NCBI GenBank assembly: GCA_030037105.1
Contig: JASHRY010000242.1
Location: 1 to 16,342, forward strand
Origin: Xanthobacteraceae bacterium
GTDB taxonomy: Bacteria; Pseudomonadota; Alphaproteobacteria; Rhizobiales; Xanthobacteraceae
DNA: 16,342 nt
Direction: 5' to 3'
Shown: piece after piece, positions 6,033 through 16,342 of the stretch
Layout: each line of letters starts with the position of its first letter
How positions within the stretch are numbered: position 1 is the stretch's first letter
Position numbers and translations under genes: made by a program
Notes under the pieces: model-generated
The model's database searches: none
Told to the model about the DNA's origin: nothing
Seen by the model: the letters and a program-made list of their open reading frames with translations, nothing else

Positions 6033-6091
6033 TCATATCAGCGGATATCGACCGGCGCCCCGTGCGTCGGAACGGCGAGCAGTCATATCAG
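6033..6091. repeat. Short direct repeat in the convergent gap before the TPR gene
   Basis: TCATATCAG occurs at 6033-6041 and again at 6083-6091, each followed closely by GATATC or GGATATCG. The second copy overlaps the stop codon of the TPR gene. It may be the trace of a small local duplication. Confidence 0.3.
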
Positions 6092-6756
6092 ATATCGCGG
6101 CCCTCGACCTTCTCGCTCAGCGTCTTGACGACATCGGCGACATGCGCAAGGTGAGGATCGATCGCCAGCGCCCGGCGATAGGCTTCGAGCGCATGCTTGT
6201 CGTCGCCGATCTCTTGCAAGATGAGACCGAGGCCGGCCAACGCTCCGAAATGCCGCGGTTCGCGGGAGAGCACTTCGCGAATGTCGGCGAGCGCGTGGCC
6301 GTAATCCTTCATCACGTAATAGATCGTGGCGCGCCGGTTCCAGGCTTCCACATAATCGGGCTCGATCTCGATGACGGCGTCGAGCAGCTTGATGGCGAGA
6401 TCGTAATCCTTGTCGTCGGCCGCCGCCTTCACCCGGTCCATGAGCAGATTGCAGGTGTCGCTGTCGGAGATCATCCACGCCGCCCAGATGCGATCCTCGA
6501 TCGCCTTGGCGCTCTCGGCGTCGGGCGCGACTTTCAAGGCTTCGAACAGCGTGTCGAGGCTGTAGGCGCGCTCGTCATGTTCGGGGCGCGGCAGATCGCT
6601 CGGTGGCGCGATCCAGTGGGGCCGCGGCGCGGCATCGGGTTCGGGCTCGTTTTGGGCGAAGGCCGCCGTTGCGGCGAGCACCGGAAGGAGAAGGACGGCG
6701 CCGAGCGCGAGAACGGAAAACCACAACGCCGGCGGGCGCAAGCACATGAATCGCAT
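6088..6756 (-). CDS. Exported tetratricopeptide-repeat (TPR) protein
   Basis: This 222-residue protein starts with a signal peptide: MRFMCLRPP, then a long hydrophobic core, with probable cleavage after AAFA before QNEPEPDAAPRP. After a proline-rich linker it has helical TPR units from about residue 100 to the end. The clearest are DLAIKLLDAVIEIEPDYVEAW, ALADIREVLSREPRHFGAL and ALEAYRRALAIDPHLAHV, with the usual Ala, Gly/Ala and Pro positions. The product is probably periplasmic, or anchored by an uncleaved signal, and acts as a protein-interaction scaffold; the partner is unknown. Similar proteins are common single genes in Hyphomicrobiales. The frame is open to a GTG at 6783, but the ATG at 6756, or 6747, gives a more normal signal peptide. 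The gene may follow rpmJ on the same strand. Confidence 0.82.
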   Translation of the reverse strand: MRFMCLRPPALWFSVLALGAVLLLPVLAATAAFAQNEPEPDAAPRPHWIAPPSDLPRPEHDERAYSLDTLFEALKVAPDAESAKAIEDRIWAAWMISDSDTCNLLMDRVKAAADDKDYDLAIKLLDAVIEIEPDYVEAWNRRATIYYVMKDYGHALADIREVLSREPRHFGALAGLGLILQEIGDDKHALEAYRRALAIDPHLAHVADVVKTLSEKVEGRDI

Positions 6757-6863
6757 GCGCGCGAATCTATCCGCCGCGCGCACGGCGGCAAGCCCGAAAT
6801 GCGCTCAAACGCGCGTGAACGCCGCGGCGCAAGCAGCGGGCCGGCGGTCGTCCAGGCATGAGC

Positions 6864-7017: not shown

Positions 7018-8058
7018 TTAGGGATGCGCTTGCACGTTGTCAATGTGACGGCGCCGCGACCTTTGCGGGGGAACCGGCAGCGTCCGGCGACCCGCCACGC
7101 GCTCCTTGAGGCAATCGAGCCAGCGCTGATAAATGCCGACCGCGGCGTGGCGCCACGGACTTTGCAGCCCGGCCTCGAGGGCGTCCATCGGAAAATCGGC
7201 GATAAGACCGTCGCGGCGCTCGCGCAGCGCGCGCCGGCGAAAGGCGTCGACCAGCGCCCTCCCCTCATCATTGAAGTAACCCTGCGGCGGCGCTGGGTAA
7301 TGCTCGCGTTCGCCGCGGAGGAAGCGGCCGATGTCGCGGCGGTATTCGCGCAGCAGCGTGCCCGCCTCGTATTCCGGATGGCCCTGGAAGAACAGGAAGA
7401 AAGAGGATGACCGCCGCTCCACCGCGGCGAACATGTCGACGCCCGCTGCGGCGGAGCGGGTGAGAACGCGATAGCCGCAGTCGGTCAGCGCCGGCTCCGG
7501 CAGATCGTTGTAACGCGAATGCGGCATGCGCAGGCGCGGCGCGGCCCCCATCGTCATCCGCTCGGCCGCCACCGCTCGGCAATCGAAGATACCGAATCGT
7601 TTCTCGGCCAGGCGGCACCGCTCGATGCCGTCGGCGTGGAGGACGGCGGCATGGGCGGCAAGGCATGACCAAATCGTCGCAGCGGTATTCTCCCTCGCCC
7701 AATCGACGAGCCGGCCCAGCGTCGCCCAATATGGCTCGTCCTTGAGGTTGGCGGCGCGCGGCTCGGTGCCGGTGACGATGAGCCCGTCGAGACGGGCATC
7801 CCACAATTCGGAAACGTCGCGGTACCGTTCGACAAGCTTGCGCCGCGCGTGGTCGGCGCGCGGAATCTCGGCGATCGAGAACAGCTTGAGGCGGACCGCA
7901 GCATCGGTCGCGGCTGCGCCGAGCAGCGCCATGAATTGTCGCTCGGTCGATTCGAGCGCCGCATCCGGCATGTTATTGACGAGCCCGATGGTGATGCAAT
8001 TGGCGCTGTGCAGGTCCGCTGGGAAGCCGGATGGTGCAACGTCGAGGAGAACGGGCAT
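7018..8058 (-). CDS. metA: Homoserine O-acyltransferase, MetA family (annotated as succinyltransferase)
   Basis: This 346-residue protein has the MetA glutamine-amidotransferase-like fold. The [15 protein letters not shown] segment (28-42) is a family signature. The nucleophile is C132 in [13 protein letters not shown], and the HPEYE motif supplies H227 and E229. MetA activates homoserine by forming O-succinyl- or O-acetyl-homoserine, the first committed step of methionine synthesis. The loop that aligns with the donor-choosing residue of E. coli MetA (Gly for succinyl-CoA, Glu for acetyl-CoA) reads TGTEPR here, with R101 at that place, so the acyl donor cannot be assigned by that rule. The gene starts 21 bp after metY on the same strand, and the two should form an operon. 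The C-terminal 40 residues are very basic and poorly conserved. Confidence 0.9.
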
Positions 8059-8079: not shown

Positions 8080-9384
8080 CTATTCGGCCGCGATGAGCGG
8101 CGCGCGTTGCTGCTGCGCCGCAGCCAGCGCCTGGTCGAGATCGGCGAGAATGTCGTCGATGTGCTCGATGCCGATGCTGAGCCGAATCATCTCCGGCCGC
8201 ACCCCGGCCTTCTCCTGTTCCTGCGCCGACATCTGCCGATGCGTGGTCGAGGCCGGATGACAGGCGAGCGACTTGGCGTCGCCCATATTGACCAGCCGCT
8301 TGAACAGCTTGAGCGCGTCGTAAAATCTCTTCCCCGCTTCGAGGCCGCCGGCGATGCCGAAGGTCAACAGCGAGCAGGCGCGGCCGCCGAAATATTTCCG
8401 CGCCAGAGCGTGATAGGGATTGTCGGCAAAGCCGGCGTAATTGACCCAATCGACGCGCGGGTCCCGGCGCAAGAATTCGGCTACCCGGCGCGCATTCTCC
8501 ACGTGGCGCTCGACCCGCAAGGCGACCGTCTCGATCCCCTGCAGCAGCAGGAACGCGGAAATGGGCGCGAGCACCGCGCCGGTCGTGCGCTGATAGACGC
8601 TGCGGCAGCGCGCGATATAGGCGGCAGCGCCGAAATGCTCGGTGTAGACCAAGCCGTGATAGGACGCGTCGGGCTCGTTGAACATGGCAAAGCGGCGCGC
8701 GTGCCGCTTCCAAGGGAAGCGGCCGCTGTCGATGATGGCGCCGCCGAGCGTGGTGCCGTGGCCGCCCAGGAACTTGGTCAGCGAATGGACGACGATGTCG
8801 GCGCCGTAATCGATCGGGCGGACGAGAATCGGCGTCGCCACGGTATTGTCGACGATGAGCGGAACTCCGTGCCGCGCGCCGACCGCGGCCAGCGCCTCGA
8901 AATCACAGATGTTTCCGGCCGGATTGCCGACGCTCTCGCAGAAGATCGCGCGCGTTTTTTCATCGATCAGCTTCTCGATCGCCTCGGGACGGTCGGATTC
9001 GGCGAAGCGGACGGCAAGCCCCTGGCTCGGCAGAATATGCGCGAACAGCGTGTACGTGGTGCCGTAGAGCTGCGGTACCGAGACGATGTTGCTGCCGATT
9101 TCGGCGAGGTTGAGCACCGCGTAATTGAGCGCCGCCTGTCCCGAACTCACGCACAACGCCGCAACCCCGCCCTCGAGCGCGGCGACGCGGCGTTCGAGCA
9201 CTGCGACCGTCGGATTGTTGATGCGGCTGTAGCGATAGCCGTCGGCTTCGAGGTTGAACAAAGCGGCGCCGTGATCGGCGCTGTCGAATTCGTAGGCCAC
9301 GGTCTGATAGATGGGGACGGCGACGGCCTTGGTCGTCGGCTCGATCTCGTAGCCGCCATGGACGGCCACCGTCTCGCTTTTCAT
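8080..9384 (-). CDS. metY: O-acetylhomoserine sulfhydrylase (aminocarboxypropyltransferase)
   Basis: This 434-residue protein belongs to the PLP-dependent Cys/Met metabolism family (fold type I) and has the length of MetY rather than the shorter MetB or MetZ. Signatures are the opening SETVAVHGGYEIEPTTKAVA, the phosphate-binding SSGQAALNYA (80-89), YRYSRINNPT (50-59), VDNTVATP (178-185) and the PLP lysine K204 in SLTKFLGGHGT. It converts O-acetylhomoserine and sulfide to homocysteine in the cytoplasm. The frame is open upstream to 9591, but the start at 9384 fits the family N-terminus and has GGCAGG about six bases before it. It is first of a metY-metA pair and diverges from the acyl-CoA synthetase gene. 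Its leader has potential structure (9412-9468). Confidence 0.94.
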   Translation of the reverse strand: MKSETVAVHGGYEIEPTTKAVAVPIYQTVAYEFDSADHGAALFNLEADGYRYSRINNPTVAVLERRVAALEGGVAALCVSSGQAALNYAVLNLAEIGSNIVSVPQLYGTTYTLFAHILPSQGLAVRFAESDRPEAIEKLIDEKTRAIFCESVGNPAGNICDFEALAAVGARHGVPLIVDNTVATPILVRPIDYGADIVVHSLTKFLGGHGTTLGGAIIDSGRFPWKRHARRFAMFNEPDASYHGLVYTEHFGAAAYIARCRSVYQRTTGAVLAPISAFLLLQGIETVALRVERHVENARRVAEFLRRDPRVDWVNYAGFADNPYHALARKYFGGRACSLLTFGIAGGLEAGKRFYDALKLFKRLVNMGDAKSLACHPASTTHRQMSAQEQEKAGVRPEMIRLSIGIEHIDDILADLDQALAAAQQQRAPLIAAE

Positions 9385-9411
9385 GTTTGCCTGCCGCGCG
9401 TTTGGAAACCC

Positions 9412-9567: not shown

Positions 9568-9612
9568 CCGATATTGAAGCGAAGGATTCACTTTGTCGGG
9601 CGATCATCGCGC

Positions 9613-11445
9613 ATGAGCCTGATCGAGATGGAACGCGCGACGCCGAGAGGTGCCGACAGGGAGACGGCGCTGCGCGACTGGGTGCGCGCGCTCGAAGCGA
9701 CCGCGTCGATCGCCGCCGATCCGCGGCGCATCCTTCCCCGCGTCGTCGAAGAACTGGCGGCAACACGCGGTGAGGCCCCGGCGCTGCTCGGCGCCAATGA
9801 AAGTCTGAGCTATCGCGCGCTCGCCGAACGCGCCAACCGCTACGCGCGTTGGGCGCTCGATCAGCGCCTCGGCAAGGGCGATGTCGTCTGCCTGATGATG
9901 CCGAACCGGCCCGAATACATGGCCGTCTGGCTCGGCCTCACCGGCGTGGGCGTCGTCGTTTCGCTCGTCAACACCCAGCTCCGCGGCGTGGCGCTCGCCC
10001 ATTGCCTCGGCCTCGTCGCGCCGAGGCATGTCATCCTCGCCGCCGAATTCTGCGACGAATTCCGCGCCGCAGCCGCAGTGCTCGCGGGCCGCCCGAGAAT
10101 CTGGGCGCACGGCGGCAGCGACGGCGGTAACGGCGGCGAATTCGAACGCATCGACCGGGCGGTGGAACGGCTCTCGGGCGCGCGGCTCGCGCCGGCCGAG
10201 CGCCCGGCGGTGACGATCGCGGATCGCGCACTGTTGGTCTACACCTCCGGCACGACCGGCCTGCCCAAGGCCGCCCATGTCAGCCACCGCCGGCTGTTGG
10301 AGTGGAGTTACTGGTTCGCCGGGCTCATGAATGCTGGGCCGGACGATCGTATGTACGATTGTCTGCCGATGTATCACAGCGTCGGCGGCGTCGCCGCCAC
10401 CGGGGCGCTTCTGGTGCGCGGCGGCTCGGTGCTGATCCGCGAGAAATTTTCCGCGCAACATTTCTGGGACGACGTAGTCGATCAGGATTGCACGCTCGTC
10501 CAATATATCGGCGAACTCGCCCGCTATCTCCTCAACGCGCCGAGAAATCCGCGCGAGCGCGCGCATCGCATCCGCATCTGCTGCGGCAACGGGCTCAGAG
10601 CCGACGTCTGGGAGAAATTCCAAACCAGATTCGCCATTCCTCGAATTCTCGAGTTCTACGCGGCGACCGAGGGCAACGTCTCGCTCTACAACGTCGAAGG
10701 CAAAATCGGCGCCGTAGGCCGCGTTCCGTCCTTCCTCGCGCACCGCTTCCCGTTGGCGCTGGTGAAATTCGACGCCGCTTGCGGCGAACCGGAGCGCGGG
10801 CCGGACGGCTTCTGCCGGCGTTGCGCGACCGACGAGATCGGCGAAGCGCTCGGCCGGATTCGCTACGGCGCGGCCGAGCGGGGCGGCGGCGAATTCGAAG
10901 GCTATACCAGCGCCGAGGACTCGGAGCGGAAGATCCTGCGCGACGTGTTCGAGCGCGGCGACGCCTGGTACCGCACCGGCGACCTCATGCGCAGGGACGC
11001 ACACGGCTTCTTCTATTTCGTCGATCGGATCGGCGACACGTTCCGCTGGAAAGGCGAGAACGTCGCGACCGCGGAGGTCGCAGCGGCGATCACGGCGTTC
11101 CCCGGCGTCACCGAGGCGGCGGTCTATGGCGTGCGCGTGCCGGGCACCGAGGGAGCCGCCGGCATGGCGGCAATCGTCGCCGACGGCGCGCTCGACCTTG
11201 CGGAATTCCGCCGGCATCTCGCGCGCCTGCTGCCGCGCTACGCGCGGCCGCTATTCGTGCGCCTTGCGGACAGGATAACCACGACCGCCACCTTCAAGCA
11301 CACCAAGAACGATCTGAGGCGCGACGGCTACGATCCGGCGGCGACAAGCGACGCGATCTTCTTTGACGATCCGGCGCGGCAGGCGTTCGTGCGCATGGAC
11401 CGCAGGCTCTTTGCGCGCATTCAAGCGGGCGAGGTGCGCGTTTAA
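9613..11445 (+). CDS. Long-chain acyl-CoA synthetase, FATP/very-long-chain type
   Basis: This 610-residue adenylate-forming enzyme activates fatty acids with ATP and CoA. The AMP-binding core YTSGTTGLPKA lies at 210-220. The next motifs are those of the fatty-acid-transport-protein (FATP/FadD6-like) branch rather than classical FadD: MYDCLPMYHS (247-256), VQYIGELARYLLN (296-308), EFYAATEGN (347-355), YRTGDL (453-458) and DTFRWKGENVATAEV (475-489), with FKHTK (561-565) near the end bearing the catalytic lysine. Such enzymes often couple uptake and activation of long-chain fatty acids at the membrane. A TTG at 9574 would add 13 residues, but the ATG at 9613 is preferred. No strong ribosome site is seen. 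The gene is divergent from metY and ends 16 bp from the convergent DUF423 gene. Confidence 0.92.
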   Translation: MSLIEMERATPRGADRETALRDWVRALEATASIAADPRRILPRVVEELAATRGEAPALLGANESLSYRALAERANRYARWALDQRLGKGDVVCLMMPNRPEYMAVWLGLTGVGVVVSLVNTQLRGVALAHCLGLVAPRHVILAAEFCDEFRAAAAVLAGRPRIWAHGGSDGGNGGEFERIDRAVERLSGARLAPAERPAVTIADRALLVYTSGTTGLPKAAHVSHRRLLEWSYWFAGLMNAGPDDRMYDCLPMYHSVGGVAATGALLVRGGSVLIREKFSAQHFWDDVVDQDCTLVQYIGELARYLLNAPRNPRERAHRIRICCGNGLRADVWEKFQTRFAIPRILEFYAATEGNVSLYNVEGKIGAVGRVPSFLAHRFPLALVKFDAACGEPERGPDGFCRRCATDEIGEALGRIRYGAAERGGGEFEGYTSAEDSERKILRDVFERGDAWYRTGDLMRRDAHGFFYFVDRIGDTFRWKGENVATAEVAAAITAFPGVTEAAVYGVRVPGTEGAAGMAAIVADGALDLAEFRRHLARLLPRYARPLFVRLADRITTTATFKHTKNDLRRDGYDPAATSDAIFFDDPARQAFVRMDRRLFARIQAGEVRV

Positions 11446-11461: not shown

Positions 11462-11836
11462 TCAGACGCCGCGATGCAGCAGAGCGCCAACGGCGGTTGC
11501 GGCAAGCGCGAGCCAGGCGGCGATGAGGATGATGCCGCCCGTCGGCGCCGCCATTGCGAAAAGGCGATGACCGGCGAAAGCGCGCAGCGCGATGTCGCCC
11601 GAGAACAGGAGGGCGCCAACGACCCACGCCGCCAGCACGGCGAGCATGGCCGGCCGCCACACCAGGCCCTGGTGCGCCAGCGCGGCTCCCCCGAGCACGG
11701 CCGCCGCATGGATCAACAGCATGGAAGCGGCGCTGTCGAGGCCGGCATGCGGCACCGCATGCGCGCCGACGGCGGCAAGGATGACACCGCCCGCCCCCAT
11801 CAGGCCGGCGAGCGCGATCAAAATGGCCAGCGCCAC
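11462..11836 (-). CDS. DUF423 family small membrane protein
   Basis: This 124-residue protein, made almost wholly of hydrophobic helices, should cross the inner membrane four times. The opening LMGAGGVILAAVGAHAVP, the following LLIHAAAVL and the segment GALLFSGDIALRAFAG are the recognisable DUF423 features. The function is unknown. The frame stays open to 11983, giving up to 173 residues, but the GTG at 11836 is chosen. AAGGGA lies nine bases before it, the resulting length matches the family (about 120-130), and the upstream extension is not hydrophobic. It converges on the acyl-CoA synthetase gene and diverges from the lactonase gene. Confidence 0.85.
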   Translation of the reverse strand: MALAILIALAGLMGAGGVILAAVGAHAVPHAGLDSAASMLLIHAAAVLGGAALAHQGLVWRPAMLAVLAAWVVGALLFSGDIALRAFAGHRLFAMAAPTGGIILIAAWLALAATAVGALLHRGV

Positions 11837-11939
11837 GGATGGTCGTCCCTTCAGTTGTCCGCGATCCGCTGCGCCTCGCGCCGCGGACTGAAAACATCGC
11901 GCCGACAGGGGCATTCCCGTATCGCCGCCGGTAAAAATA

Positions 11940-11951
11940 TGCAAATTTGCA
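11940..11951. promoter_or_regulatory. AT-rich palindrome upstream of the lactonase gene
   Basis: TGCAAATTTGCA is a perfect 12-bp palindrome lying 30 bases before the lactonase ATG, and it overlaps a direct repeat of GCAAATT (11941-11947 and 11949-11955). It falls in the 145-bp gap between the divergent DUF423 and lactonase genes, within an AT-rich patch preceded by AAAAATA. It may be an operator for either gene or part of a promoter. Confidence 0.35.
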
Positions 11952-11981
11952 AATTCAGAAACGAGGCAAGCGGACGCCGGC

Positions 11982-12779
11982 ATGAACGAGGATCTCCACG
12001 AAATCTACGCCATCCGTTACGGCCACCACGCGCGCCGCTCGCCGGCGAATTTCATCGACGGCGATCCGCACGACGTGCTGCAGCCGCTCGACTTCTTCGT
12101 CTGGGCGATCGTCGGCCGCTCCGCCACGATCATCGTCGACACCGGCTTCGACGAGGCGATGGGACGCCGCCGCCAGCGCGAGATGATCAAGCCGGTGCAC
12201 GACGGGCTCAATGCCCTCGGCATCGCCCCGGAAGCGGTCGAGACCGTCATCATCAGCCACTTGCACTACGATCATTGCGGCAATCACGGGCTGTTTCCGC
12301 GGGCGCGCTATCACCTGCAGGATCGCGAAATGGCCTATGCGACCGGACGCTGCATGTGCCATCAGGCGCTGCGCATGCCGTTCGAGGCCGACGACATCGT
12401 CGCCATGGTGCGCAAAGTGTTCGCCGGCCGCGCCGTCTTCCATGACGGCGAGGACGAGATCGCGCCGGGTGTAAGCGTGCACTTGATCGGCGGCCACTCC
12501 AAGGGCCTGCAGTCGGTGCGGGTGAAAACCCGGCGCGGCCATGTGGTGCTCGCCGCCGACGCCACGCATCTCTATGCCCACATCGACGGCGGCCGGGTAT
12601 TTCCGATCACCTATAATGTCGCCGAGGTGGTCGAGGGCTATGCGACGCTGAAAAAACTCGCGACTTCGCCGCGCCACGTCGTGCCCGGGCACGACCCGCT
12701 GGTGCTCGCGCGCTATCCGGCGGCCAAGCCCGGCCTCGAAGGCTGGATCGTGCGCCTCGACGCCGATCCCCTCTCTTGA
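11982..12779 (+). CDS. Metallo-beta-lactamase-fold hydrolase, N-acyl-homoserine-lactonase family
   Basis: This 265-residue protein carries a full set of dinuclear zinc ligands: H93, H95, D97 and H98 in SHLHYDHCGN, H172 in GGHSKG, D193 in ADATHLY and H237 in VPGHDP. The order, spacing and overall length fit the AHL-lactonase group (AiiA, AttM/BlcC). These open the lactone ring of acyl-homoserine signals or of gamma-butyrolactone in the cytoplasm. Substrate cannot be settled from sequence, since the same group includes hydrolases of other lactones and esters. No signal peptide is present. The start at 11982 has only a weak ribosome site. No luxI or luxR gene is visible in the window. A neighbouring acyl-CoA synthetase and carrier-protein genes raise the possibility that an acylated product made nearby is the substrate, which is inference. 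Confidence 0.85.
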   Translation: MNEDLHEIYAIRYGHHARRSPANFIDGDPHDVLQPLDFFVWAIVGRSATIIVDTGFDEAMGRRRQREMIKPVHDGLNALGIAPEAVETVIISHLHYDHCGNHGLFPRARYHLQDREMAYATGRCMCHQALRMPFEADDIVAMVRKVFAGRAVFHDGEDEIAPGVSVHLIGGHSKGLQSVRVKTRRGHVVLAADATHLYAHIDGGRVFPITYNVAEVVEGYATLKKLATSPRHVVPGHDPLVLARYPAAKPGLEGWIVRLDADPLS

Positions 12780-12818: not shown

Positions 12819-13565
12819 CTACGCCGTGGCGCCGGCATCGACGGTGAGGACGGTACCGGAAATGTTGCGCGCCTTGTCGCTGATGAGGTACTCGACCGCG
12901 TTTGCGACGTCCTCCACCTCGGCGAGACGGCGCAGCGCGCTTCTGCGCATGATCCGCTGGCGCTGCTCGTCGGCCAGGCGGTGCGTCATCTCGGTCGCCA
13001 AGAAGCCGGGCGCCACGGCGTTGACGGTGATGCCGAGCCGTCCCACCTCGCGCGCCAGCGAGCGGGTGAAGCCGAGCATCGACGCTTTGGTCGCCGCATA
13101 GGCCGAAAGGCCGCTGTAGCCGGTGAAGCCGATGATCGAGGCGACGTTGACGATACGGCCGAAGCCGTCCGCCATCATCCCGCGCACCACGTATTTGGTG
13201 AGCACGATCGGCGACAGCGTGTTCAGGCGCACCAGCTCTTCGATCCTCGAATTGTGCATTGTCGCCAGCACGCCGTCATGGCCGAGTGCGGCATTGTTGA
13301 CGAGGCCGGACAATGGGCCGAATTCCTTGCGCAGCTTGCGCACCAGACCGGGAATTTCCTCGATCCGGCCGAGGTCGAACGGCACGAAGTGGAACGCGCC
13401 CTGCCCGGCGCGTTCGGCTTGCGCGCCCGCCGCCGCCACCTCCTTGTTTTTCTGCCGCGCCACGGCGATCACCCGGTATCCCGCGGCGGCGAGTTTTTGC
13501 CCGATGGCCAGGCCGAGACCGCGGCTGCCGCCGCTCACGAGCACGCTGCGCATCACTACGGCCAT
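12819..13565 (-). CDS. FabG-like short-chain dehydrogenase/reductase (SDR)
   Basis: This 248-residue classical SDR has the cofactor loop SGGSRGLG (11-18), the NNAA motif (90-93) and the catalytic set S143, Y156 and K160 in ASIIGFTGYSGLSAYAATKAS. ISGTVLTVDAG near the C-terminus is the usual FabG-type ending. FabG enzymes reduce 3-oxoacyl groups on acyl carrier protein with NADPH. Because the gene is last in a tight operon with an acyl carrier protein and an adenylate-forming ligase, the substrate is probably a carrier-bound beta-keto group, though this is inferred from context. The arginine R15 in the loop is consistent with NADP(H). The start at 13565 has AAGGG six bases upstream and lies 3 bp after the ligase stop, so translation is likely coupled. 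The main fabG of fatty-acid synthesis should be elsewhere. Confidence 0.9.
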   Translation of the reverse strand: MAVVMRSVLVSGGSRGLGLAIGQKLAAAGYRVIAVARQKNKEVAAAGAQAERAGQGAFHFVPFDLGRIEEIPGLVRKLRKEFGPLSGLVNNAALGHDGVLATMHNSRIEELVRLNTLSPIVLTKYVVRGMMADGFGRIVNVASIIGFTGYSGLSAYAATKASMLGFTRSLAREVGRLGITVNAVAPGFLATEMTHRLADEQRQRIMRRSALRRLAEVEDVANAVEYLISDKARNISGTVLTVDAGATA

Positions 13566-13568
13566 GGC

Positions 13569-14966
13569 TCACCCTTGCCGGCGCTCGATCTTGCCGGTTG
13601 CCGCGACCGCGAGCGTCGGCACGAAGCTGATCGCGGCCGGCACTTTATGGCGCGGCAATGTCTCACGGCAGAGCTTGAGGATGTCGTCCCTGACCTCAAT
13701 CCGCCGCGCGCCCGCCGAGTCCTGCTCGAATTTCAGCACCACGTCGGCCACCACGACCGCGCCGGTGATCGGGTTCCGCCGCGGCCGCACCAACGACATG
13801 CGCACCTGCGGATGCCGGTTGATCACGGCCTCGATCTCCTCGGGATGAATCTTCAATCCGCCGACATTGATGATGCCGCCCCTGCGGCCGATGAAGTAAA
13901 AGCGCTCCCCGCGCCGCTCCACCATGTCGCCGGTGTCGACGAAGCCGTCGCCGTCGGCGAGCCTCTCCCCGGCGCCGAGGTAGCGGGACGCCATCCGCGG
14001 CGAGCGGACGGAGAGCGCACCGTCAACGATCTTCAGCTCGACGCCGTCGCGGACGGCCCCGACATAGTCGGCGGGAAAACCGGCGCGACCGTCGTTGACG
14101 TCGAAGCCGACGCCGGCCTCGGTCGAGGCATAGGCGTGTCCGATATTGGCCTGCGGAAAGACCGCGCGCAGGCTGTCGAGGATCGCCTGGTCCGCGATCT
14201 CGCCCGAGAGCCGCACATAGCGCGGTGCGATCGCGCGGATCGCCGGACTCATCAGCGCGCGGCGCCACTGCGACGGCGTGCCGGAAAGGTGCGTCACGCC
14301 GTGTCGCGCCAGCCGCGCGAGATGCTCGGCAACCGGCTCGCCTGAGCTCGAGAGAACGAGCGAGGCGCCGCCGCAGACGGCACGGAGGAAAATCTGCAGC
14401 CCGCCGTAACGGCGGATGTCGTAGAACGTCCCCCACACCGCCGCGCCGTCGGCCAGGCTTTTGGCCGCCACGGCCGCCGTGAGGCCGGCAAGATCGTGCA
14501 CGACCATCTTCGGTACGCCGGTCGTGCCCGAGGTCAGCAGCACCCATTCGCTGCGGCGGCGAACCGGCGGGGCTTGCTCCGTCGGCACGATCGACGGCGC
14601 GCACGGGACGCGGTCGAGATGATCGAATGCCGCGGCATGTGTGTCGCCGTGATCGATCACGACGGCATCGACCTCGGCCCGCCCGATCACGGCGGCAAGA
14701 TGGTCGGCCGCGATGTCGGGCGGCAGGACGGTGATACGCCGCGCGCAGCCGTCAAGCTCGATCAGCGCGAGCGCGGTCGTCAATTGGTCCGCGGTCGCGA
14801 CCAGGACCGAACGGCCGCATAAATCCGCGAGCCGGCCGGCGAGGCTTGTTCCGCGACCAAGGTCAGTGAGGCGCACGGATCGGGCGCGGTCGCGGAAAAA
14901 TCGCGGCGCCGGCGCGTTGGCGACACGGTCGCGCAGCGACGGCGCCTCAACGCGCGCCATTTTCAT
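13569..14966 (-). CDS. Adenylate-forming (ANL) acyl/aryl ligase, compact form
   Basis: This 465-residue member of the ANL superfamily has the P-loop-like LTSGTTGVPKMV (144-155), YASTEAG (279-285), DTGD (344-347), the hinge region IGRRGGIINVGGLKIHPEEIE and, at the end, the catalytic lysine K459 in TGKIERR. It adenylates a carboxylic acid and passes it to a thiol. The N-terminal domain is shorter than in most acyl-CoA synthetases of 500-550 residues. The gene overlaps the upstream acyl carrier protein gene by 20 bases (14 if the ATG at 14960 is used), so the likely acceptor is that carrier protein rather than free CoA, as in stand-alone acyl-ACP or DltA-like ligases. That assignment is inferred from context. 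The substrate is unknown. Confidence 0.87.
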   Translation of the reverse strand: MKMARVEAPSLRDRVANAPAPRFFRDRARSVRLTDLGRGTSLAGRLADLCGRSVLVATADQLTTALALIELDGCARRITVLPPDIAADHLAAVIGRAEVDAVVIDHGDTHAAAFDHLDRVPCAPSIVPTEQAPPVRRRSEWVLLTSGTTGVPKMVVHDLAGLTAAVAAKSLADGAAVWGTFYDIRRYGGLQIFLRAVCGGASLVLSSSGEPVAEHLARLARHGVTHLSGTPSQWRRALMSPAIRAIAPRYVRLSGEIADQAILDSLRAVFPQANIGHAYASTEAGVGFDVNDGRAGFPADYVGAVRDGVELKIVDGALSVRSPRMASRYLGAGERLADGDGFVDTGDMVERRGERFYFIGRRGGIINVGGLKIHPEEIEAVINRHPQVRMSLVRPRRNPITGAVVVADVVLKFEQDSAGARRIEVRDDILKLCRETLPRHKVPAAISFVPTLAVAATGKIERRQG

Positions 14967-15192
14967 AGGCCAGCACGAAGTCGCCGAGCGTCACCGGAAA
15001 GAAGGCGTTCTCGGCGGCGGTAAACGGATCGATGCCGAGGGTGTCTTCCAGACGCGCGACCAGCACGGCAAAGCCGAGCGAATCGAGACCGCAATCTACG
15101 AGCGCGAGATCGTCGTTGAGCGGCGCCAGGATCTTGCCGTGCTCCCGCGCCACCTGCTGCATCTCTCGCGTTATGGTTAATTTTACCGACAT
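14947..15192 (-). CDS. Acyl carrier protein (phosphopantetheine-binding)
   Basis: This 81-residue, four-helix carrier protein has the attachment motif CGLDSLG, with S38 as the serine that receives 4'-phosphopantetheine, and helix II reading FAVLVARLEDTLGIDPF. It is not the housekeeping AcpP, whose DSLDTVEL sequence and acidity differ. It is a dedicated carrier of the kind found in small secondary pathways. It heads the operon carrier-ligase-SDR and should hold the acyl group made by the ligase while it is reduced. AGGCG stands a few bases before the ATG at 15192. An amino acid:[carrier protein] ligase lies about 1 kb upstream on the same strand, so this protein, or another outside the window, may be its acceptor. 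Confidence 0.9.
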   Translation of the reverse strand: MSVKLTITREMQQVAREHGKILAPLNDDLALVDCGLDSLGFAVLVARLEDTLGIDPFTAAENAFFPVTLGDFVLAYENGAR

Positions 15193-15224
15193 GACGTGCG
15201 CCTACGCTTTGTTCACATCGGCCC

Positions 15225-15252
15225 GGTATATTCGCGTAACACTTACGATCAA
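15225..15252 (-). promoter_or_regulatory. Candidate promoter of the carrier protein-ligase-SDR operon
   Basis: On the minus strand TTGATC (15252-15247) and TATACC (15230-15225) are spaced by 16 bases. They would start transcription about 25 bases before the acyl carrier protein ATG. The gap is shared with the divergent GNAT gene, and its AT-rich patch is the only one nearby. This is a match by eye only. Confidence 0.35.
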
Positions 15253-15267
15253 GTTCACGACACGGTC

Positions 15268-16152
15268 GTGGTCAACGCCAAGGTCTCTCCCGTGCCGGGA
15301 CTCCGCTGCCGTCAGATCGCCGAAGCCGATATCGCCGCCGTCGCCGCCCTGCTGGCGCGCGGATTCCCCAACCGCAGCCGGAAATTCTGGCAGCGCGCCT
15401 TTGCGCAACTGACCAGGCGCGAGCCGCCGCCGGGTTTGCCGAAATATGGTTACCTCATGGAGAGCGGCCGCGTTCCGGTCGGTGCGATCCTGCTCATCTG
15501 CGCGACGATGTGGAACGGCGAACAGGCATCGATCCGCTGCAACCTGTCGAGCTGGTACGTCGAACCGCGATTCCGCGCTTACGCGCCGTTGCTGGTGTCG
15601 CAGGCGTTGCGGCACAAGGACGTGACCTATCTCAACGTCTCGCCGGCGCCGCACACCCTCTCGACCATAGAAGCGCAAGGATTCTCCCGCTATTGCGACG
15701 GCATCTTTGTCGCGCTGCCGATGTTGAACGGGCCGTTCGGGAAAGCTGGCGTCGAGGTGTTCGACGCGCGGCGGCCGCTGCCGATCGACGTCGATCCCTT
15801 CGAGCAGGAGGTGTTGCTCGAACATGCCGCGCACGGCTGCATCAGCCTGTGGTGCGCGAGCGTCGGGCGTGCTTACCCGTTCGTGTTCCGCCCGCGCCTG
15901 GTGAAGACCGTCGTGCCCTGCGCACAATTGATCTACTGTCGCGATGTCGGAGATTTGGTCCGCTTTGCCGGACCGGTGGGGCGATACCTGGCGCGGCGCG
16001 GCAGATCCCTGGTCATCGTCGACGCGAACGGACCCATAGCCGGGCTCATCGGCATGTTCCGCCGCGACCGCATGCCGAAATATTTCAAGGGTCCGCAGCG
16101 GCCGCGCCTGGGCGACCTCGCCTATACCGAATACGCGATGCTCGGAGTGTAG
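15268..16152 (+). CDS. GNAT-like acyltransferase, diverged acyl-CoA motif
   Basis: This protein of 294 residues (from the GTG at 15268) resembles the GNAT N-acyltransferase fold in its first half: CRQIAEADIAAVAALLARGF (14-33), the beta strand ICATMWNGEQASI, NLSSWYVEPRFRAYAPLL (92-109) and YLNVSPAPHTLSTIEAQGF (121-139). The acyl-CoA pyrophosphate loop, normally R/Q-x-x-G-x-G/A, reads RFRAYA, with Ala for the central Gly. The C-terminal half (from about 150) is not recognised. The acyl donor could be CoA or a carrier protein, and the acceptor is unknown. It diverges from the carrier protein operon. No ATG fits. GTG at 15196 would extend into the opposite promoter; GTG at 15292 has AAGG eight bases before it and gives 286 residues. 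Confidence 0.72.
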   Translation: MVNAKVSPVPGLRCRQIAEADIAAVAALLARGFPNRSRKFWQRAFAQLTRREPPPGLPKYGYLMESGRVPVGAILLICATMWNGEQASIRCNLSSWYVEPRFRAYAPLLVSQALRHKDVTYLNVSPAPHTLSTIEAQGFSRYCDGIFVALPMLNGPFGKAGVEVFDARRPLPIDVDPFEQEVLLEHAAHGCISLWCASVGRAYPFVFRPRLVKTVVPCAQLIYCRDVGDLVRFAGPVGRYLARRGRSLVIVDANGPIAGLIGMFRRDRMPKYFKGPQRPRLGDLAYTEYAMLGV

Positions 16153-16190
16153 CCGTTCCCGTCCGCGACGCGGGGGACGAGTGGAGCGCG

Positions 16191-16342
16191 TCACAACCCC
16201 AGCGCTTTGCGTACCGTGGCGGGCCAGTCCGCAAGCTCGATACCGTGGGTGGCGAACAACGCCAAAGCCAGCCGATCGATGCCGAAGGCGACGCAGCCGG
16301 TATGCGCCACCTCGCCGGCCGCATTGCGCAGGTTCCACGCCG
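16191..16342 (-). CDS. C-terminus of amino acid:[carrier protein] ligase (seryl-tRNA-synthetase-like)
   Basis: The last 49 residues of a minus-strand protein enter from the right edge and end with ATVRKALGL. VAHTGCVAFGIDRLALALFA is a class II aminoacyl-tRNA-synthetase motif 3, with the ATP-binding arginine in GIDR. The preceding cysteine sits where atypical archaeal-type seryl-tRNA synthetases hold their zinc. The ending ATHGIELADWPATVRKAL matches the amino acid:[carrier protein] ligases. These are truncated SerRS homologues, first described in Bradyrhizobium, that activate glycine or alanine and load it on a small carrier protein instead of tRNA. Most of the gene, and possibly its own carrier protein, lie outside the window. 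It converges on the GNAT gene, 38 bp apart. Confidence 0.82.
   Translation of the reverse strand, partial: AWNLRNAAGEVAHTGCVAFGIDRLALALFATHGIELADWPATVRKALGL

What the first reader, a model, noticed from the sequence alone, without database searches (positions are those of the whole stretch)
12819..16342. Compact carrier-protein locus that joins an amino acid:[carrier protein] ligase with an acyl ligase, ACP, reductase and transferase
Seen: an operon of ACP (S38 attachment site), ANL ligase and FabG-like SDR, with a 20-bp overlap and a 3-bp gap; a divergent GNAT-like transferase; and the C-terminus of a SerRS-like amino acid:[carrier protein] ligase. Known: the last enzyme loads Gly or Ala onto small carrier proteins, and the purpose of that in the cell is largely unexplained. 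Inference: the genes could make an acylated or N-acyl-amino-acid product, one enzyme charging an acid, another an amino acid, the SDR reducing the carrier-bound intermediate and the GNAT releasing or joining the parts. I know of no described pathway with exactly this set.
Basis: partly seen in the sequence, partly recalled or inferred. Interest (0 to 1): 0.75.

Follow-up and report, generated by a model that had tools for sequence, protein, structure and literature searches.

The report
Two-carrier acyl and aminoacyl pathway locus
A conserved bacterial gene cluster appears to load an amino acid onto one small carrier protein and another acid onto a second, with a transferase likely to join the products; it gives a concrete way to ask why bacteria charge carrier proteins with amino acids at all.

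Summary
(1) The genes belong together: all five lie in 32 of 79 relative loci. In 199 genomes of the order, strong GNAT matches occur in exactly the 12 genomes that have the ANL, and 11 of those 12 have a LIG. (2) LIG has its own partners just outside the window: a second carrier protein related to crystallised aminoacyl carrier proteins, and an acyl-CoA-dehydrogenase-like flavoprotein. The window's ACP is therefore probably the ANL's carrier, not LIG's. (3) The set is larger: a long-chain acyl-CoA synthetase and a MetA/MetY-like pair in the window belong to it. (4) Another branch of LIGs carries a DUF1839 transferase in the GNAT's place; no fetched locus has both. The GNAT is a tandem-GNAT without a Pfam family. 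Best reading: a two-carrier pathway in which the tandem-GNAT joins a fatty or ACP-bound acyl group to a carrier-bound glycine (or alanine). The product and the ANL's acid are unknown.

The parts
14947..15192 (-). Acyl carrier protein (ACP), 81 aa, Ser38 attachment site; carrier of the ANL arm
   Evidence: PF00550 27 bits; directly followed by ANL in 44 of 44 loci with both; family alignment A7 with invariant D37-S38-L39
13569..14966 (-). ANL-superfamily ligase (465 aa), presumed to charge the ACP; conserved W-x-T-[FY]-YDIRRYGGLQ segment, catalytic-type lysine in a GK near the C-terminus
   Evidence: PF00501 and PF13193; alignment A2 of 27 sequences; followed by SDR in 38 of 38 loci with both
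12819..13565 (-). FabG-like SDR (248 aa), YxxxK present in the sequence; presumed NAD(P)H reductase of the ACP-bound group
   Evidence: PF00106/PF13561; below the cut-offs of the 25 NCBIfam models shown
15268..16152 (+). Tandem-GNAT-fold transferase (likely start GTG 15268; ORF opens at 15196), presumed N-acyltransferase
   Evidence: AlphaFold2 model mean pLDDT 93.3; Foldseek and VIA-align best matches are tandem GNATs; best Pfam E-value 0.01 among 49 members
16191..16340 (-). C-terminal 49 codons plus stop of amino acid:[carrier protein] ligase (LIG); the gene runs off the window
   Evidence: 92% identical to LIG of L001, which passes NF005479 and matches Bll0957 structures
9574..11445 (+). 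Long-chain acyl-CoA synthetase of FATP/FadD6 type (FACL)
   Evidence: NF006134 equivalog 755 bits, cut-off 625; in 31 of 79 GNAT loci and in 6 of 6 further ANL loci L120-L125
8080..9591 (-). MetY-like PLP enzyme (O-acetylhomoserine aminocarboxypropyltransferase family); conserved part about 8080-9390
   Evidence: TIGR01326 610 bits, cut-off 495; 33 of 79 loci; directly downstream of LIG in 17 of 28 loci with both
7018..8058 (-). MetA-like homoserine O-acyltransferase (HTS)
   Evidence: NF003776 406 bits, cut-off 358; follows the MetY-like gene in 28 of 29 loci with both

Best explanation
The locus is one end of a dedicated two-carrier biosynthetic pathway. Shown by genome comparison: two carrier arms and one transferase belong to the same set. 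Arm 1 (mostly outside the window): LIG activates glycine (or alanine) and charges its own small carrier protein, and an acyl-CoA-dehydrogenase-fold flavoprotein that lacks the usual catalytic glutamate acts on that aminoacyl thioester (inferred). Arm 2 (in the window): the ANL charges the ACP with a second acid, perhaps one with an anionic group, and the FabG-like SDR reduces it (inferred). A long-chain acyl-CoA synthetase supplies fatty acyl-CoA (inferred from its family). The tandem-GNAT makes the amide bond, most likely acylating the amino group of the carrier-bound glycine or its oxidised form (inferred). The MetA/MetY-like pair would add or supply a homoserine-derived unit in many lineages (inferred). 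The product would be a lipidated or acylated amino-acid conjugate.
For: Gene set: all five genes in 32 of 79 loci, LIG in 55, ANL in 44 of 79. Operon pairs: ACP-ANL 44/44, ANL-SDR 38/38, ACAD-LIG 55/55, MetY-MetA 28/29, LIG-MetY 17/28, MetA-GNAT 14/29, FACL-ACP 16/30. Gene order differs between Xanthobacteraceae, Bradyrhizobium, Bauldia and Methylobacterium loci while the set persists. L134 holds LIG, its carrier, flavoprotein, GNAT, ACP, ANL, SDR, FACL, MetY-like, MetA-like and TPP genes in one stretch. Distribution: of 199 genomes in the order, ANL in 12 and strong GNAT in the same 12; of the 36 LIG genomes over the cut-off, 25 are DUF1839-type and none of these has the ANL, while the other 11 all have it. 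In five genomes the arms lie apart yet both are present. Separate carriers. Flavoprotein: isoleucine at the position where dehydrogenases have the catalytic glutamate (position recalled, aligned through 7p98) in 87 of 87, which fits glycine having no beta carbon. Transferase: high-confidence tandem-GNAT model, similar to N-acyltransferases including N-myristoyltransferases.
Against: The ACP-ANL-SDR-GNAT core also exists without any detectable LIG: G202 in the order sample, and G456 and G398 in the class sample; L016 lies in a genome without LIG. So the GNAT cannot depend on aminoacyl carrier protein everywhere. Sixteen of 79 GNAT loci have neither ANL nor LIG nearby, some on short contigs. The MetA/MetY-like pair was not found in 46 (MetY) and 50 (MetA) of the 79 loci, many of them short, and in L112/L113 it sits by sulfate-assimilation genes, so it could be ordinary methionine synthesis. 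Fold similarity does not fix donor or acceptor. No enzyme was assayed, and the amino acid is known only for homologues (from the literature, recalled). Relatedness of genomes inflates the co-occurrence figure.
Confidence: 0.36

Rival explanations
1. Surface-glycan decoration: both carrier arms supply acyl groups (an amino acid and a small hydroxy acid) that transferases attach to amino sugars of a cell-surface polysaccharide or flagellin; no free lipo-amino acid is made.
For: Aravind and colleagues proposed amino acid ligation to a surface sugar for the ligase system they examined (PMC2922099, passages), and the DUF1839-type loci carry a GH2-like gene next door. Distant ACP-ANL-SDR sets lie beside pseI, flagellin and a KAS III gene on an Azospirillum plasmid (L142) and beside glycosyltransferase and mdoH genes in Qingshengfaniella (L141). 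Aeromonas flagellar glycosylation islands of group II hold ACP, 3-oxoacyl-ACP reductase and AMP-dependent synthetase together (PMC7874193, passages).
Against: The 11 gene families found in 23 or more of the GNAT loci were all annotated and none is a sugar gene (with 4 and 5 for the window's own); most smaller families were not annotated. The GNAT-type loci carry a long-chain acyl-CoA synthetase and MetA/MetY-like genes instead.
Confidence: 0.27
2. A methionine- or homoserine-derived unit is central: the pathway builds an aminocarboxypropyl or homoserine conjugate (rhizobitoxine- or canaline-type chemistry from O-acylhomoserine, or acyl-homoserine-lactone-type chemistry from S-adenosylmethionine by a GNAT-fold enzyme; both recalled), with carrier-bound glycine or an N-oxidised glycine and the ACP arm as the other parts.
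For: LIG is followed directly by the MetY-like gene in 17 of 28 loci, MetA-like follows MetY-like in 28 of 29 and leads into GNAT in 14 of 29. L112 and L113 keep ACAD-LIG-MetY-MetA at the LIG locus. In 14 of 79 loci, all listed as Bradyrhizobium, LIG's carrier gene has methylthioadenosine phosphorylase and methylthioribose-1-phosphate isomerase genes on its strand just downstream, the phosphorylase at gaps of 86 to 283 bp (annotated in L037): methionine salvage, where SAM-consuming transferases release methylthioadenosine. The flavoprotein profile also matches nitrososynthases and lacks the dehydrogenase glutamate.
Against: The MetY/MetA pair was not found near LIG in the small Bradyrhizobium loci such as L038, and the salvage genes were seen only in Bradyrhizobium, so they may be local synteny. 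L112/L113 place the pair beside APS kinase and PAPS reductase genes, which suits ordinary methionine synthesis.
Confidence: 0.18
3. One reading: LIG charges the window's own ACP, so both ligases compete for or cooperate on one carrier.
For: ACP and LIG are about 1 kb apart in the window, and no second carrier was recognised inside it.
Against: A second carrier sits beyond the flavoprotein in L001 and is present in 50 of 55 loci with LIG. It matches the solved aminoacyl carrier proteins (E 3e-13) while the ACP does not at E up to 1. DUF1839-type loci have CP-ACAD-LIG and no such ACP.
Confidence: 0.06
4. Neighbouring but unrelated genes kept together by shared descent of the genomes.
For: Many of the 79 loci come from Bradyrhizobium and Xanthobacteraceae; the co-occurrence test is not corrected for relatedness.
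Against: Order and orientation are shuffled between families while the set persists, and the arms co-occur even when unlinked.
Confidence: 0.05

Closest known systems
Amino acid:[carrier protein] ligase system of Bradyrhizobium (Bll0957) and Agrobacterium (Mocibob et al. 2010, 2013; not read, recalled, cited in PMC9437257)
   Same: Same ligase family (NF005479), same type of small carrier protein, same flavoprotein neighbour (in Bradyrhizobium bll0958 is listed as acd next to bll0957 in PMC10888616, table passage)
   Different: Here the ligase is tied to a tandem-GNAT, a second ACP with ANL and SDR, a long-chain acyl-CoA synthetase and MetA/MetY-like genes; the passages that I read do not mention these together
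DUF1839-type ligase loci (the kind probably meant in Aravind's note in proof, PMC2922099, passages)
   Same: CP, flavoprotein and ligase in one operon
   Different: DUF1839 (papain-like, PMC10318531 passages) in place of the GNAT, and a GH2-like gene; ANL in 0 of 25 such genomes of the order sample
ACP / 3-oxoacyl-ACP reductase / AMP-dependent synthetase triad of Aeromonas flagellar glycosylation islands (PMC7874193, passages) and of Azospirillum and Qingshengfaniella plasmids (L142, L141)
   Same: Same three gene types; the plasmid sets are homologous (ANL 246 and 366 bits, SDR 231 and 295 bits). The Aeromonas proteins were not compared
   Different: No GNAT-family or FACL-family member among the ten plasmid proteins tested, apart from a weak FACL hit to the L142 ANL itself (LIG not tested there, and none is named in the annotation). 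By eye, the ANL has Ala, Cys or Ser where the window family has an invariant Arg in 4 of the 5 distant ANLs printed
Tandem-GNAT N-acyltransferases (Eis, glucosamine N-acetyltransferase, N-myristoyltransferase)
   Different: 9 to 12% identity in those rows; no convincing Pfam or PDB sequence match

Membership tests
Amino acid:[carrier protein] ligase (NF005479) | Score over the curated cut-off | tested here: met
   For the full-length L001 orthologue, 460 vs 357 bits. The window holds only 49 residues, which gave no match by themselves
Amino acid:[carrier protein] ligase (NF005479) | Short SerRS-like core without the tRNA-binding arm | tested here: met
   307 aa in L001; the SerRS models matched have 518 positions and only about 308-505 of them align
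Amino acid:[carrier protein] ligase (NF005479) | Charges a carrier protein with an amino acid | not testable with these tools
   Needs an assay; known for Bll0957 from the literature (recalled; review passage in PMC9437257)
Aminoacyl carrier protein (partner of LIG) | Sequence relation to the crystallised carriers 4h2s_C, 4h2w_C, 2jq4 | tested here: met
   Second carrier of L001: E 3e-13, 5e-8, 6e-8. The window ACP: none of these at E up to 1
ANL superfamily | AMP-binding domain plus C-terminal domain with the catalytic lysine | tested here: met
   PF00501 76 bits, PF13193 43 bits; G453-K454 invariant in the 27 rows of A2
NRPS/DltA-type amino acid adenylation enzyme | Asp at the A4 position that binds the substrate amino group (recalled) | tested here: inconclusive
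   HMMER alignment to MenE 5buq puts invariant Arg181 at that position; the alignment runs through MenE, and Asp178 is three residues away
FabG 3-oxoacyl-ACP reductase | Score over a curated FabG cut-off | tested here: not met
   Best 212 bits against 298 (TIGR01830) and 203 against 222 (NF009466); filed only as FabG-like SDR
Acyl-CoA dehydrogenase (functional) | Catalytic glutamate at the MCAD position (recalled) | tested here: not met
   Ile in 87 of 87 aligned flavoproteins, position set by alignment through 7p98, which itself has Thr there; a base elsewhere is not excluded. Filed as acyl-CoA-dehydrogenase fold only
GNAT superfamily | GNAT fold | tested here: met
   Model pLDDT 93.3; 252 PDB matches at E up to 0.001, top rows GNATs
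GNAT superfamily | Significant match to a GNAT Pfam model | tested here: not met
   Best E 0.01; the two most frequent GNAT models match 5 of 49 members each; no family for the window protein at E up to 5
N-myristoyltransferase | Sequence match to the NMT family models | tested here: not met
   Not among the 12 Pfam families matched by 49 members at E up to 5 (HMMER's filters drop most matches above about 0.1); structural similarity not specific

The most novel reading that the evidence does not exclude
A condensation-domain-free and tRNA-free lipo-amino-acid assembly line: a tandem-GNAT, working like an N-myristoyltransferase, acylates the amino group of glycine while it is held as a thioester on a dedicated carrier protein, a flavoprotein oxidises that glycyl unit, and a second ACP arm and a homoserine-derived unit complete the product. 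Charging carrier proteins with glycine would then exist to present the amino acid to an acyltransferase, and two unrelated transferases (GNAT or DUF1839) would define two branches of one system.
Probability: 0.25. Interest if true: 0.85.

Novelty: new variant of a known kind. Interest (0 to 1): 0.6.

Why it matters
[quoted passage not shown] This comparison splits those ligases into two branches by transferase partner, and gives one branch a defined set of further genes that share its distribution across genomes. That turns an orphan activity into a testable pathway with named enzymes, substrates to try and deletion phenotypes to compare. The transferase family has no significant Pfam match in the members scanned.

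Tried and rejected
A first AlphaFold job on 29 close homologues gave a useless model (pLDDT 53.9); a second with 126 more diverse sequences gave 93.3. A PDB sequence search for the transferase returned nothing at E up to 1, or only weak matches (E 0.44 and above, mostly plant chymotrypsin inhibitors) that I take as chance. I considered that the MBL gene (11982-12779) belongs to the set: its relative is in 1 of 79 loci, so I left it out. I considered reading the ANL as a DltA-like amino acid loader from its conserved Asp, but the alignment puts Arg, not Asp, at the diagnostic position; left open. I considered the flavoprotein as an aminoacyl dehydrogenase like the prolyl-PCP enzymes; the missing glutamate argues against this. 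I considered an N-myristoyltransferase membership claim; sequence does not support it. Literature: searches listed no paper that I could recognise as describing this gene set; the held library lacks most subscription journals. The two founding papers on the ligase were not read.

Papers seen: PMC2922099, PMC9437257, PMC10888616, PMC10318531, PMC11941606, PMC7874193 and PMC10817482 as passages found by term only (PMC10817482 and PMC11941606 held nothing of use); all others as search listings.

Full report
What is there. The window ends inside a ligase gene. Reading left from that end, the minus strand carries the last 49 codons of the ligase (stop 16191-16193), then after the plus-strand transferase the operon ACP (14947-15192), ANL (13569-14966) and SDR (12819-13565). 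The ACP has Ser38 in a GLDS motif. No whole genome is held for the window, so I worked from relatives.

Relatives. A profile of 29 transferase sequences found 79 distinct loci in named bacterial genomes (92 relatives were found and the best 80 kept). The closest, L001, a Xanthobacteraceae MAG (91% identity), shows what lies to the right of the window: full LIG (307 aa), an acyl-CoA-dehydrogenase-fold flavoprotein (called ACAD here), and a second carrier protein. LIG passes the NCBIfam ligase cut-off (460 vs 357 bits) and aligns over residues 13-307 with crystallised Bll0957. The second carrier matches the crystallised aminoacyl carrier proteins (E 3e-13); the window's ACP matches none of them at E up to 1.

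The set is real and larger than five. Among the 79 loci, counted by score thresholds given in the script, ANL is in 44, ACP 46, SDR 38, LIG 55, ACAD 55, second carrier 50, FACL 31, MetY-like 33, MetA-like 29, aminotransferase 22, TPP enzyme 20. Many contigs are short, so genes just beyond an end are missed. In the 46 loci with at least 9 kb on both sides the numbers are ANL 24, LIG 34, second carrier 34, FACL 20, MetY-like 21. Nineteen loci have LIG without ANL, eight ANL without LIG, sixteen neither. The five LIG loci without a second carrier are contigs that end inside the flavoprotein gene. Four operon pairs are fixed or nearly so: ACP-ANL 44 of 44, ANL-SDR 38 of 38, ACAD-LIG 55 of 55, MetY-MetA 28 of 29. 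Others vary: LIG-MetY 17 of 28, MetA-GNAT 14 of 29, LIG-GNAT 16 of 55, FACL-ACP 16 of 30, GNAT-TPP 8 of 20. The order of blocks differs between families.

Distribution across genomes. In 199 genomes drawn from the order, LIG is found in 40, 36 over the cut-off. I fetched 36 of these 40 LIG regions, plus four from other genomes; G001 and G005 were already in hand, and two weak partial matches (G043, G046) were left out. Twenty-five of the order genomes have a DUF1839 gene at the LIG locus and neither GNAT nor ANL beside it. The other 11 genomes over the cut-off are G001, G005, G049, G056, G084, G120, G126, G157, G161, G200 and G210. The ANL profile hits 12 of 199 genomes at E up to 1e-60: these 11 and G202. 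The GNAT profile hits 18 of 199 at E up to 1e-20: the same 12 with at least 272 bits, and six DUF1839-type genomes with 150 to 166 bits. Fisher's exact test for ANL against GNAT-type LIG gives 3e-17 and is not corrected for relatedness. In five genomes LIG and ANL lie apart. There the ANL is in a FACL-ACP-ANL-SDR block (L120-L122) or a TPP-GNAT/ACP-ANL-SDR-FACL block (L123, L124). In G210 ANL is next to LIG and the GNAT is on another contig.

A wider class sample of 289 genomes gives ANL in 7, LIG over cut-off in 7, GNAT in 6. It shares at least G001, G056 and G131 with the order sample. The three genomes with GNAT-type LIG (G001, G056, G351) all have ANL. The four other LIG genomes over the cut-off (G131, G397, G490, G342) have none; G131, G397 and G490 are DUF1839-type, and at the G342 locus my scan shows LIG and a carrier but no flavoprotein. 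Four ANL genomes have no LIG: G456 and G398 with GNAT, and G263 and G358 with only distant ACP-ANL-SDR sets. So the ACP-ANL-SDR-GNAT core is somewhat wider than LIG, while GNAT-type LIG was never seen without it in these two samples.

Two branches of the ligase. A tree of 95 LIG rows puts the 25 DUF1839-linked rows together with L116 on a starred branch (99/100). No locus from L001 to L119 holds both DUF1839 and GNAT. DUF1839 is a papain-like family with a Cys-(Thr/Ser)-His site (PMC10318531, passages). Aravind's group predicted that the ORF next to the Agrobacterium ligase (Atu2574) is the amide-forming enzyme (PMC2922099, passages). That this ORF is DUF1839 is my inference from position; I did not read that gene by name. 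In the GNAT branch an unrelated transferase holds that place, which is the main new point here. The six weak GNATs of the DUF1839 genomes sit elsewhere; in L126, L128 and L131 a carrier protein lies between GNAT and an AMP-binding ligase, and in the other three my scan shows the ligase only. This suggests a general tie of the family to carrier proteins.

The other enzymes. The flavoprotein has RDxxSxxxMIxNDR in 87 of 87 sequences of both branches, with Ile where dehydrogenases have the catalytic glutamate (position recalled, set through the alignment to 7p98). That best solved relative also lacks it, so another base is possible. Glycine has no beta carbon, so oxidation at nitrogen or the alpha carbon would fit. 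The ANL family has an invariant YDIRRYGGLQ in 27 rows. By alignment through MenE, Arg181 takes the place of the residue that reads the substrate. In five distant relatives that position is, by eye, Arg once and Ala, Cys or Ser in the other four. I read this as a distinct, perhaps anionic, substrate. The SDR falls below the curated FabG cut-offs.

A methionine theme. Besides the MetA/MetY-like pair, 14 of the 79 loci, all listed as Bradyrhizobium, carry methylthioadenosine phosphorylase and methylthioribose-1-phosphate isomerase genes just downstream of LIG's carrier on the same strand, and L112/L113 have sulfate-assimilation genes beside LIG (annotated in L112). This may be local synteny, or it may mean that a homoserine- or SAM-derived unit enters the product.

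Context of the distant core. On Azospirillum p3 a distant ACP-ANL-SDR set stands between pseI and a flagellin gene, with a KAS III gene; in Qingshengfaniella it stands among glycan genes. Aeromonas flagellar glycosylation islands of group II carry the same three gene types (PMC7874193, passages). This is why surface-glycan acylation is the strongest rival. I rate the lipo-amino-acid reading a little higher because the GNAT-type loci carry a long-chain acyl-CoA synthetase, and none of the 11 families found in 23 or more loci is a sugar gene.

Verdict. The chemistry is inferred. In Bradyrhizobium diazoefficiens, bll0957 and bll0958 are listed as raised at transcript and protein level in a phaR mutant (PMC10888616, table passage), so this type of system is expressed. 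Novelty: new variant of a known kind.

Noticed in passing
window 11982-12779 (+): Metallo-beta-lactamase-fold protein nearest to AHL lactonase models but far below their cut-offs (67 vs 390 bits); relative found in 1 of 79 loci (L001).
   Followed up: partly
window 11462-11983 (-): Small ORF with relatives at similar places in L012 (79%) and L014 (69%); not scanned against family libraries.
   Followed up: no
window 6088-6783 (-): TPR-repeat protein next to the MetA-like gene, on its downstream side.
   Followed up: no
L037-L039, L041, L042, L045, L047-L049, L051, L054, L056, L057, L079: Methylthioadenosine phosphorylase and methylthioribose-1-phosphate isomerase genes next to LIG's carrier gene, same strand (annotated in L037).
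   Followed up: partly
L112, L113 (LIG region): ACAD-LIG-MetY-MetA stand near APS kinase and PAPS reductase genes (annotated in L112), with ACP-ANL-SDR-GNAT-FACL elsewhere in the same genomes: a possible link to sulfur assimilation.
   Followed up: partly
L116 and L138: LIG with a carrier protein but no flavoprotein, GNAT or DUF1839 found nearby: a possible third branch.
   Followed up: no
L114 and L115: Distant LIG-like proteins (151 and 136 bits) in a shared gene neighbourhood of their own.
   Followed up: no
L126-L131: Weak members of the transferase family (150 to 166 bits) beside a different AMP-binding ligase, with a carrier protein between them in three of the six loci by my scan.
   Followed up: partly
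L088, L103, L105, L106, L114, L115, L118, L119: One gene cluster seen in 8 of 40 LIG regions; the two members annotated (L088, L103) are GGDEF-EAL proteins. Such genes are common, so it may be chance.
   Followed up: no
L031/L052 and L046/L053: Two Bradyrhizobium contigs each carry two copies of the transferase, one in the full cluster and one in a neighbouring stretch.
   Followed up: no
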